Positions 23,284 through 25,741 of a stretch of 64,000 bases of DNA are shown piece by piece; the first letter of the stretch is position 1, and each line of letters opens with the position of its first letter. The position numbers and the translations under genes were made by a program. Source of the DNA: Fibrobacter succinogenes (GTDB lineage: Bacteria; Fibrobacterota; Fibrobacteria; Fibrobacterales; Fibrobacteraceae); assembly GCA_902762305.1 (NCBI GenBank), contig CACWNW010000004.1, positions 62,001 through 126,000 of the forward strand. The letters are read 5' to 3'. The notes below the pieces were generated by a model. That model searched no databases and was not told the origin of the DNA. It saw nothing but the letters and a program-made list of their open reading frames with translations.

Positions 23284-23703
23284 ATGAAGTTTTCCTATGC
23301 CCTGATTCTTGCAGGTTCGCTCGCTTTCTTGGCTTGCGATGATACGACATCGGCTGACAACGGTTCTGATTTTGATTGCACCGTGAGCGGTGGCGTGAAG
23401 GTCGTATCCCCCAAGGGTGGTGAGGAATTCAAGATCGGTGACAAGATTACCGTTGTGTATGGTTCCGATGTACAGGGTTCCGGTTATCGTTTCGTTTTCA
23501 AGGCCTCGGAAGAAGACATGGGCACTGATTTGCTCGATGGTTCTGCTGGTCCGGAGCAGCCGGATGGCAAGACATGCTACGAGCAGGAAGTTGTCTTGTC
23601 GGAAGGCCTTGTCGAGCCGACTTCGACGGCCATTATTCGAGTGATTCCATACGAACGCCAGAACAAGGGCGCTAATTCCGGGACCTTCAAGGTCAAGGAG
23701 TAA
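23284..23703 (+). CDS. Small lipoprotein with beta-sandwich-like domain
   Basis: A 139-residue predicted lipoprotein with lipobox LAFLAC (Cys 18). After a short Ser/Asp-rich linker, the mature part begins VKVVSPKGGEEFKIGDKITVVYGSDV, the opening pattern of immunoglobulin-like domains often found in surface proteins of this phylum. A GTGAGG site precedes the ATG. The stop overlaps the start of the following epimerase by one base (TAATG), so the two are coupled, though the functional link is unclear. Confidence 0.72.
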   Translation: MKFSYALILAGSLAFLACDDTTSADNGSDFDCTVSGGVKVVSPKGGEEFKIGDKITVVYGSDVQGSGYRFVFKASEEDMGTDLLDGSAGPEQPDGKTCYEQEVVLSEGLVEPTSTAIIRVIPYERQNKGANSGTFKVKE

Positions 23704-24848
23704 TGAACCTCCGTTTCGACGACAATAGTATCACTGTGGCCATTGTAGGCTGCGGTGGTTTTATCGGTAGCCATTTGCTCGACGCCGTGTTGGAACGTAC
23801 CCGCTGGCGCGTGTTCGGCGTTGATCTCGATTTCTACAGGTTGCAGCACCGCCTGAACCATGAGCGGTGTGAATTCCTGTGCGCGGACCTTGCCGACCCT
23901 TCCGTTGTGGAGCGCATTGCGCAGTTCCCGCTGGTGGTGAACTTGGCCGCCATTTGCACGCCGAGCCGCTACATGGGGGAGGCGTGCGAGGTCATCCGGA
24001 GCAATTACGACCACCCGGCGGCTTTGGCCGAGGCGTGCGCGAAGTCAGGTTCCTGGCTCGTGCATTTTTCGACTTCCGAGATTTACGGACGTACGGCACC
24101 CGATTCGGGTGAACTGGAGGAAGATTCGACGCCTGCCGTGTTCGGGCCAGTTACCGCGAGCCGCTGGAGCTATGCGACTGCGAAACTCCTGGCGGAGCGT
24201 TATATCGCGGGACTGCCTGGGCTTAAGTGGACGGTTGTCCGCCCGTTCAATTTTGTCGGGCCGTACATGGACTTTATGCCGGGTATCGACGGCGAGGGAA
24301 TTCCGCGGGTGCTTGCGAACTTCTCGACGGCGCTTTTACGGGGAGAACCACTCAAACTTGTGAACGGCGGGAAGGCGAAACGTTGCTTTACTAGCGTACA
24401 CGATGCGGTAGACTTCTTGTTCGCGCTGTTTGCCGCAGGCTCTGGCGCTGCACACGATGCTGGTTTCAAGATTGCGCAAGACGCCGGTTCAGGAAAGGCA
24501 CAAGTTTCTGGTTCTAAAACTGCGCCGGATTCGGGGGTATTCTCGCAGGCGTTCAATGTCGGGAATCCGAAGAACGAGGTGAGTATTGCGGAACTTGCGC
24601 AGAAGATGCGCTCGATTTTCGCGAAGGTACGCGGGGTCGATGTCTCGACGCTGCCGAAACCGCAGGTGGTCTCGGGCGAGGAATACTACGGTGCGGGTTA
24701 CGATGATTCGATGCGTCGCATGCCCTCGGTCGCGAAGGCTGAACGCTTGCTCGGGTTCAAGGCGCGCATCCCGCTCGATGTCGCTCTCGAGGAATCGCTC
24801 TCGTGGTTCGTCGGACATTATGGTACCGGTTTGTCATCCCCCGCTTGA
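23703..24848 (+). CDS. ArnA-like UDP-glucuronate decarboxylase/epimerase (SDR)
   Basis: A 381-residue extended short-chain dehydrogenase closely patterned on the decarboxylase half of ArnA. The NAD loop GCGGFIGSH is at 17-24, S125-E126 lies in FSTSEIYG, and catalytic Y157 and K161 are in SYATAK. The late motifs NVGNPKNEVSI and EEYYGAGYDDSMRRMPSVAKA resemble the ArnA segment with its essential Arg. Oxidative decarboxylation of UDP-glucuronate is therefore likely. Residues about 245-278 are a low-complexity Ala/Gly/Asp insert of degenerate eight-residue repeats absent from the family. The last codons and the stop are provided by the repeat element at 24832. No formyltransferase half is present. 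Confidence 0.8.
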   Translation: MNLRFDDNSITVAIVGCGGFIGSHLLDAVLERTRWRVFGVDLDFYRLQHRLNHERCEFLCADLADPSVVERIAQFPLVVNLAAICTPSRYMGEACEVIRSNYDHPAALAEACAKSGSWLVHFSTSEIYGRTAPDSGELEEDSTPAVFGPVTASRWSYATAKLLAERYIAGLPGLKWTVVRPFNFVGPYMDFMPGIDGEGIPRVLANFSTALLRGEPLKLVNGGKAKRCFTSVHDAVDFLFALFAAGSGAAHDAGFKIAQDAGSGKAQVSGSKTAPDSGVFSQAFNVGNPKNEVSIAELAQKMRSIFAKVRGVDVSTLPKPQVVSGEEYYGAGYDDSMRRMPSVAKAERLLGFKARIPLDVALEESLSWFVGHYGTGLSSPA

Positions 24849-24926
24849 CGGGGGATCTCCCTTTTATGAATAAATGTTTAGTTTTCATAAATAAAAAGGA
24901 GATGTCCGACTAAATCGGACATGACA
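24832..24926. repeat. Cruciform REP-like element: two inverted 29-base units, each with its own hairpin
   Basis: Two units face each other. The left reads TGTCAT, hairpin, ATCTCC (24832-24860); the right is the same plan on the other strand (24898-24926). The left hairpin pairs ATCCCCCG with CGGGGGAT, the right ATGTCCGA with TCGGACAT. The stems differ in sequence yet each remains fully paired, while the flanking TGTCAT and ATCTCC are identical. Between the units TTATGAA (24864-24870) and TTCATAA (24884-24890) pair too. The element supplies the stop codon of the epimerase and ends six bases before the GTG of the GT2 gene. Confidence 0.85.
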
Positions 24927-24931
24927 AGTAA

Positions 24932-25741
24932 GTGCATCCCGATTACTTCATCTTTGTTCCGGCCTATAACGTATCGCAGACTCTTGCGGACGTATTGGGG
25001 CGCATTTCGCCCGCAGTCATGGAACGCGCGGAAGTGCTCGTGATAGACGACGGCTCGAAGGATGATACCCGCGGGGCCTATGAAACGTTTGTCGGCGCAT
25101 CTTCAATCATGAACTGCGCGGCATCCGGTAAGGCGTGCGCGGGCCACCTGCATTACGAGCGTTTCGAGAAGAACTGCGGTTACGGCGCGGTCGTCAAGCG
25201 CGGAATCACTGCAGGCCTGGAATCGGGTGCGAAGTTCATCGCCTGCTTGCATGGCGACGGGCAGTACCCCGCCGAGCAGCTTGGCGAATTTTTTGCGTAC
25301 CTCGAGTCCGCGCGCACCCAGCCCGAAAATGCCGAGCGCACCCAGCCCGAGGCAAGTGGCCTGCCAGAAATAGCCCTCGTCCAAGGTTCCCGCCATGCTG
25401 TCGCGGGGGGCGCGAAAGCCGGCAACATGCCTTTGTACAAGCGGCTCGGCGGGGCTTTCCTCACCGCGCTCGAGAACATCGCTTTCCGGCAGAAGCTTAC
25501 GGACCGACATAGCGGTTTCATCGTCTACAATGCGGAATTCCTGAAGACGCTTGACCTCAAAGCGCTGAGCCCGAGCTTCGATATCGACCTGGAAATCATA
25601 TCCATCGCCGATGCCCGCGGTTACCAGCAGGCAGAACTCCCGATACCCACGCGCTATGCCGGCGAGAAGTCCAACCTGAACGTCGTCACCTACGGCCTGC
25701 GCGTCTTGCGGCAAATTCTGCGCCGTTTTTGCCTGCGATAA
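24932..25741 (+). CDS. GT2 glycosyltransferase (ArnC/DPM-synthase-like)
   Basis: A 269-residue GT-A enzyme: opening YFIFVPAYN, nucleotide Asp in VLVIDDGSKDDT, donor motif HGDGQYP, and SGFIVYNAEFL in the acceptor region, typical of polyprenyl-phosphate sugar transferases. The GTG at 24932 immediately follows an in-frame TAA. The nearest AAGGAG is about 30 bases upstream inside the cruciform element, so translation initiation may have been disturbed by its insertion. Two family-atypical inserts are visible, one Ala/Cys-rich near 55-70 and one containing an in-frame duplication (RTQPE twice, 25312-25350). C-terminal membrane helices seen in ArnC are absent. Role inferred: making a lipid-linked sugar. 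Confidence 0.8.
   Translation: MHPDYFIFVPAYNVSQTLADVLGRISPAVMERAEVLVIDDGSKDDTRGAYETFVGASSIMNCAASGKACAGHLHYERFEKNCGYGAVVKRGITAGLESGAKFIACLHGDGQYPAEQLGEFFAYLESARTQPENAERTQPEASGLPEIALVQGSRHAVAGGAKAGNMPLYKRLGGAFLTALENIAFRQKLTDRHSGFIVYNAEFLKTLDLKALSPSFDIDLEIISIADARGYQQAELPIPTRYAGEKSNLNVVTYGLRVLRQILRRFCLR

What the first reader, a model, noticed from the sequence alone, without database searches (positions are those of the whole stretch)
24832..24926. Cruciform repeat whose two units differ by compensating base changes
Both 29-base units read TGTCAT-(17-base hairpin)-ATCTCC. The flanks are identical, but the hairpin stems are CCCCCG/CGGGGG in one and GTCCGA/TCGGAC in the other, each fully paired. 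That is direct evidence that pairing, not sequence, is kept. The inverted pair with an inner stem resembles a BIME/REP element or a small transposase-mobilised repeat.
Basis: seen in the sequence. Interest (0 to 1): 0.6.

Follow-up and report, generated by a model that had tools for sequence, protein, structure and literature searches.

The report
CGTC-type REP dimer in Fibrobacter
A short pair of DNA hairpins wedged between two sugar-processing genes of a rumen bacterium belongs to a known class of tiny repeats (CGTC-tagged REPs) not previously described, as far as I found, in this bacterial phylum, and its many copies show that the hairpin shape is kept while the letters change.

Summary
Two 29-bp units lie head-to-head at 24832-24860 (+) and 24898-24926 (-), each TGTC-AT-6 bp-5 nt-6 bp-AT-CTCC, with different but fully paired stems. 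They belong to a genus-wide family: 17 exact copies in this genome, about 420 in 23 Fibrobacter genomes, 0 for the reversed control pattern. Of these, 376 have all six inner pairs Watson-Crick, using 32 stems. At two orthologous loci a pair changed on both sides in place, so the covariation is real; template-switch mutation could also produce it.

Feature by feature it is a CGTC-tagged REP (Di Nocera 2013, closest to CGTC-2) in a head-to-head heterodimer; that paper's text does not mention Fibrobacter. Fourteen relatives lack the dimer at this gene junction, so it was most likely inserted in this lineage. No REP-associated transposase was found in the genus genomes searched; the few IS200-type transposases do not track copy number and are not flanked by units.

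New beyond the known description: loop bases 7 and 10 covary (C-TT-G or T-TT-A, never reversed), leaving base 11 out, which resembles single-stranded-DNA REP hairpins read by TnpA-REP. Identity is near certain; the mobilising enzyme is unknown.

The parts
24832..24860 (+). REP unit 1: tag TGTC (24832-24835), stem ATCCCCCG/CGGGGGAT (24836-24843 / 24849-24856), loop CTTGA (24844-24848), tail CTCC (24857-24860)
   Evidence: 17 exact family copies in the genome
24861..24897 (.). 37-bp AT-rich spacer of the head-to-head dimer; its ends (CTTTT.../...AAAAA) extend the inner stem ATCTCC/GGAGAT
24898..24926 (-). REP unit 2 (opposite strand): tag TGTC (24926-24923), stem ATGTCCGA/TCGGACAT, loop TTTAG, tail CTCC (24901-24898)
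24832..24926 (.). whole element: CGTC-type REP, head-to-head heterodimer (tags outside, tails inside), 95 bp
   Evidence: definition; fold; 17 of 17 other HH dimers are heterodimers
23703..24848 (+). upstream gene: NAD-dependent sugar epimerase/dehydratase family (resembles UDP-pentose synthase / ArnA C-terminal domain, below curated cut-offs); its TGA stop (24846-24848) lies in the loop of unit 1
24932..25741 (+). downstream gene: glycosyltransferase resembling polyprenyl-phosphate sugar transferases (below curated cut-offs); predicted start 6 bases after unit 2

Best explanation
The element is a head-to-head heterodimer of a CGTC-tagged repetitive extragenic palindrome: a miniature, non-autonomous, dispersed DNA repeat that inserted at the junction of two co-oriented sugar-metabolism genes in this Fibrobacter lineage. 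SHOWN: a dispersed genus-wide family; an 8-bp stem starting AT, a constant tag and tail; stem pairs that covary; absence at the same junction in relatives; strong enrichment outside genes, especially between converging genes; in-frame intragenic copies in UvrA, DNA ligase and others. INFERRED: (1) The entity recognised is the folded single strand of DNA (tag plus hairpin plus apical loop), because the loop itself has a constrained shape (bases 7 and 10 form C-G or T-A, one base left out) and because G.T mismatches are not clearly commoner than A.C mismatches, so there is no sign of selection for RNA pairing on one strand. (2) An enzyme acting in trans, probably of the single-strand HUH type but not identifiable here as a RAYT, copied or moved the units. 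(3) Stem pairing is then maintained by selection for recognisability, by hairpin template-switch correction, or both. At this locus it separates two genes that overlap or abut in most relatives and provides the stop codon of the first; any regulatory effect is secondary. The confidence given is for the identity and insertion; for the ssDNA-enzyme mechanism I would give about 0.5.
For: Copies and controls: 17 in own genome, 0 reversed control; 23 of 25 genus genomes with a match (one of them a single chance match), essentially chance level in other families. Covariation: 420 copies, 376 with all six inner pairs, 32 stems; mutual information picks exactly 6-12, 1-17, 4-14, 5-13 and 7-10. Two orthologous loci with both-side changes at pair 6-12 and continuous flanks (L240/L252 G-C to A-T; L308/L216 G-C to T-A), where a neutral simulation gives under 1% such outcomes against 52-85% unpaired. 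Insertion: 14 relatives lack the dimer at the junction. Location: 106 of 134 classifiable copies intergenic against about 18% of random positions; 25 convergent, 7 divergent. Membership features. Apical pair: Marinomonas REP loop TTTA whose T12 and A15 are inferred to pair and are needed for TnpA-REP cleavage (PMC8266576).
Against: No mobilising enzyme identified; no unit lies next to any Y1 transposase gene apart from one distant unit of another loop type in L051. Copy number does not follow Y1 presence (G014 43, G019 50, G024 38 copies without one). No recent transposition event was observed; only two unambiguous in-place compensations were found, against two in-place unpaired changes. The typical CGTC tail is CCA, here CTCC, and single units outnumber dimers. 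The DNA-level inference rests on 20 G.T against 14 A.C mismatches, a small sample.
Confidence: 0.9

Rival explanations
1. RAYT-mobilised REP/REPIN of the GTAG type (BIME-like), moved by a resident REP-associated tyrosine transposase.
For: Same general architecture: short tagged hairpin, head-to-head dimers, extragenic location. Y1-family genes exist in 8 of 25 genus genomes.
Against: Tag is TGTC, not GTAG. No protein in the 17 genus genomes scanned exceeds the RAYT cut-off; the four Y1 proteins tested are IS200/IS605 transposases. Genomes with many copies (G003, G014, G019, G024) lack Y1 altogether. No family units beside the Y1 genes.
Confidence: 0.07
2. The covariation is a by-product of mutation: hairpin (quasipalindrome) template switching copies one arm onto the other, so pairing is kept without selection.
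For: Template switching can create and maintain perfect hairpins (PMC8794818). The in-place double changes at pair 6-12 are what one substitution plus one arm-copying event would give.
Against: Arm copying would also tend to make the loop palindromic, yet base 11 stays unpaired (A in 281, G 91, T 37, C 7 of 416) while 7 and 10 covary only as C-G or T-A. The tag and tail are constant without pairing to each other within a unit.
Confidence: 0.35
3. Intrinsic transcription terminator or mRNA 3'-end hairpin, selected as RNA.
For: Downstream of genes; T-rich after the tail (T 73-83% at +1 to +3); enriched between converging genes.
Against: The T tract starts only 4 bases after the stem; orientation relative to the upstream gene is only weakly biased (45 same, 29 opposite); intragenic in-frame copies occur; G.T pairs not clearly in excess over A.C (20 against 14); no Rfam family.
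Confidence: 0.1
4. Peptide-coding repeat kept for what it encodes, like Rickettsia palindromic elements.
For: Intragenic copies are in frame and nearly all read antisense as EIPGQAGND or RSPVKPGMT (14 of 15 inspected), in UvrA, LigA, HrpB-type helicases, MetH and others.
Against: About 79% of classifiable copies are extragenic. The peptide bias can be explained by tolerance, since one frame of each strand contains a stop and the antisense peptides are hydrophilic.
Confidence: 0.03

Closest known systems
CGTC-tagged REPs, family CGTC-2 (Di Nocera, De Gregorio and Rocco 2013, PMC3733652)
   Same: Unpaired tag (CGTC, often TGTC), 8-bp stem beginning AT, 5-nt loop, short unpaired tail, complementary stem variants, HH dimers commonest among dimers, CGTC-2 dimers mainly heterodimers, location downstream of genes and between convergent or tandem genes, intragenic copies notably in repair genes, no associated transposase.
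   Different: Host phylum Fibrobacterota is not among the five listed there; tail CTCC instead of CCA; single units predominate in my samples (127 of 144 and 91 of 118); the loop shows a covarying 7-10 pair that the text I read does not describe.
GTAG REPs with TnpA-REP (RAYT), e.g. Marinomonas REP-Mb (PMC8266576)
   Different: GTAG tag and dedicated transposase; here the tag is TGTC and no such transposase was found.
Neisseria dRS3 and Rickettsia RPE-4/RPE-6
   Same: Identified in PMC3733652 as CGTC-1 (dRS3, RPE-6) and CGTC-4 (RPE-4) elements; the Rickettsia ones also insert in frame in genes.
   Different: Different loop and stem classes; different hosts.

Membership tests
CGTC-tagged REP (CGTC-2) | Terminal unpaired CGTC tag, frequently TGTC | tested here: met
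   TGTC in all exact copies (by the pattern); among 216 looser hairpins T 186, C 25 before GTCAT
CGTC-tagged REP (CGTC-2) | 8-bp stem with complementary AT as first and second positions | tested here: met
   AT + 6 bp; 376 of 420 copies with all six inner pairs
CGTC-tagged REP (CGTC-2) | 5-nt loop | tested here: met
   Mostly CTTGA-type, though bases 7 and 10 covary; 4-nt and 6-nt loop units coexist in the genome
CGTC-tagged REP (CGTC-2) | Short unpaired tail, mostly CCA | tested here: inconclusive
   Short unpaired tail present, but CTCC rather than CCA
CGTC-tagged REP (CGTC-2) | Dimers mainly head-to-head; heterodimers predominate in CGTC-2 | tested here: met
   17 HH against 5 TT and 5 HT among 118 copies, all 17 with different stems; 91 single. 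In the first sample HH and TT were about equal
CGTC-tagged REP (CGTC-2) | Mostly intergenic, between tandem or convergent genes, near 3' ends | tested here: met
   74 tandem, 25 convergent, 7 divergent, 28 intragenic
CGTC-tagged REP (CGTC-2) | No associated transposase gene | tested here: met
GTAG REP / REPIN | GTAG tag and RAYT flanked by copies | tested here: not met
   Tag TGTC; no RAYT over cut-off, no flanking units

The most novel reading that the evidence does not exclude
CGTC units are ssDNA hairpins with a dedicated but still unrecognised recognition enzyme outside the Y1/RAYT family. The constrained cap (Y-TT-R pair plus one extruded base), the tag, and heterodimers that avoid identical stems are its specificity determinants. 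High-copy Fibrobacter genomes without any Y1 gene would be the place to find it.
Probability: 0.2. Interest if true: 0.65.

Novelty: new member of a known kind. Interest (0 to 1): 0.4.

Why it matters
CGTC REPs are a large group of bacterial repeats with no known mover. The genus Fibrobacter gives 25 related genomes with 0 to 53 exact copies each, many lacking any Y1 transposase, which makes the question of what moves them testable. The orthologous both-side changes allow selection for pairing to be separated from template switching.

Tried and rejected
RAYT association: PF01797 and NF047646 searches over relatives; only IS200/IS605-type proteins in the genus, uncorrelated with copy number, no units beside them. 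Known RNA family: none; best Rfam match is a chance mir-9 at E 0.21, far below its cut-off. Phage-borne spread: only two viral contigs carry a strict-pattern copy. Some apparent ortholog pairs with compensations (L229/L272/L314, L243/L280, L293/L246, L218/L264) were discarded because the bases next to the unit do not align. A first reading that genomes with few or no exact copies lack the repeats is wrong for G007, G009 and G011, which hold hairpins with other tails.

Full report
WHAT IS THERE. Each reads TGTC | AT + 6 bp | 5-nt loop | 6 bp + AT | CTCC. As single-stranded DNA the dimer folds into a four-armed structure far better than shuffles (z -6.5): outer stem TGTC/GACA, two hairpins, and an inner stem ATCTCC/GGAGAT extended by the spacer ends.

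IT IS A FAMILY. The assembly holding the window (3.6 Mb, 57 contigs) has 17 exact TGTCAT-N17-ATCTCC, reversed control 0, and 53 of the broader GTCATNCC-N8..14-GGNATC, control 0, including 4-nt loop (GCGAAGGC) and 6-nt loop (CTCCGA) units. 23 of 25 genomes of the genus have exact matches (G007's single one is unpaired and so chance), up to 53 each; other families of the class show 0-1, as expected by chance. A GTDB-wide scan identifies the carriers mainly as Fibrobacter, with further exact copies in gut Bacteroidales MAGs and one alphaproteobacterium MAG (flanks).

COVARIATION. The search pattern fixes only the flanks, so pairing inside is an independent observation. Of 420 copies from 23 genomes, 376 have all six inner Watson-Crick pairs, using 32 different stems (first set of 167). 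Mutual information over distinct sequences picks out the stem pairs 6-12, 1-17, 4-14 and 5-13, and additionally 7-10; everything else is near the shuffle level. Positions 7 and 10 are C-G in 344 and T-A in 59 of 416, never G-C or A-T, with base 11 variable. The 'pentaloop' is therefore better drawn as a two-base loop closed by a pyrimidine-purine pair with one extruded base. Two-base loops are plausible in DNA rather than RNA (established knowledge, not tested here). G.T mismatches (20) are not clearly more frequent than A.C mismatches (14), so there is no sign of RNA-strand selection, though numbers are small. Caveat: copies are related to each other, so shuffles overstate significance; the ortholog comparison below does not depend on that.

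IN-PLACE CHANGES. Stretches around copies in three related genomes were compared. Most orthologous units are identical. Two loci with continuous flanks show a both-side change at pair 6-12: L240/L252 (G-C to A-T) and L308/L216 (G-C to T-A). Two loci show changes that break pairs (L217; L281). A neutral simulation at 6-15% divergence gives 0.4-0.9% compensated against 52-85% unpaired outcomes. Pairing is thus actively maintained, but selection and hairpin template switching (PMC8794818) cannot be separated on this sample. The unpaired base 11 and the asymmetric cap favour some selection on shape.

INSERTION SITE. In 14 relatives the same epimerase and glycosyltransferase genes are adjacent and mostly overlap or abut (for example ...CATTATGGCTAACGAC...); none has this dimer. 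Here the epimerase stop codon TGA (24846-24848) lies in the loop of unit 1 and the glycosyltransferase's predicted start is 6 bases after unit 2. G004, G009 and possibly G015 carry other GTCAT..ATC palindromes or fragments at the same junction, so it has probably been hit more than once.

LOCATION. Of 134 classifiable copies, 106 are intergenic (random positions: about 18%); convergent junctions are enriched and divergent ones depleted. Orientation relative to the upstream gene is weakly biased (45 to 29). Intragenic copies are in frame and antisense in 14 of 15 inspected, reading EIPGQAGND or RSPVKPGMT. Pfam names the hosts of ten as UvrA-type proteins (three), NAD-dependent DNA ligase, HrpB-type helicases (two), a ResIII helicase, methionine synthase, a restriction-modification protein and MurB. 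Gene calls here come from a simple codon model, not a curated annotation.

DIMERS. In 118 copies of three genomes, 17 are head-to-head, 5 tail-to-tail, 5 tandem and 91 single; all 17 head-to-head partners have different stems. The window dimer fits this pattern.

WHAT IT IS. The features coincide with the CGTC-tagged REPs of Di Nocera et al. 2013 (PMC3733652): tag CGTC or TGTC, 8-9 bp stem starting AT, 4-5 nt loop, short tail, HH dimers, heterodimers in CGTC-2, position near 3' ends, repair-gene insertions, and no transposase. That paper lists Proteobacteria, Chlorobi, Bacteroidetes, Spirochaetes and Thermotogae and its text has no mention of Fibrobacter. Its figures and supplements could not be read, so an earlier record cannot be fully excluded.

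MECHANISM. A RAYT was sought in 17 genus genomes and not found; the four Y1 proteins tested in the genus are IS200/IS605 transposases. Y1 genes are absent from several high-copy genomes and not flanked by family units. The cap resembles that of Marinomonas REP-Mb, whose TTTA loop bases T12 and A15 are needed for cleavage and inferred to pair (PMC8266576). I therefore think a trans-acting single-strand-DNA enzyme recognises or recognised tag plus hairpin plus cap; this step is inference and its enzyme is unknown.

Noticed in passing
L192, L196, L185 (same gene junction as window 24832-24926): The epimerase/glycosyltransferase junction carries different GTCAT..ATC palindromes or fragments in G009, G004 and possibly G015, suggesting repeated insertion at one site.
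   Followed up: partly
L001 1501-1529 (own genome C1:57246-57274), L104 5478-5506, L171 6210-6238: Units inserted in frame in UvrA-type proteins, the first two at the same site after SPTG.WIK; the first is in this genome. Repair-gene insertions were also reported for CGTC REPs in other phyla.
   Followed up: partly
L092 788-1021: A Bacteroidales MAG holds three same-strand CGTC units spaced 66 bases apart plus a fourth in opposite orientation; other gut Bacteroidales and one alphaproteobacterium carry matching 29-mers.
   Followed up: no
G007, G009, G011: Genomes with few or no exact copies have hairpins with other tails or loop types, e.g. GTCATCCCGAGCGAAGTCGAGGGATC, so the CGTC-like family in the genus has several subtypes.
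   Followed up: no
L330, L331, L332 (G030, G031, G029): REP-tyrosine-transposase-like proteins occur outside the genus in the same class, all below the curated RAYT cut-off.
   Followed up: no
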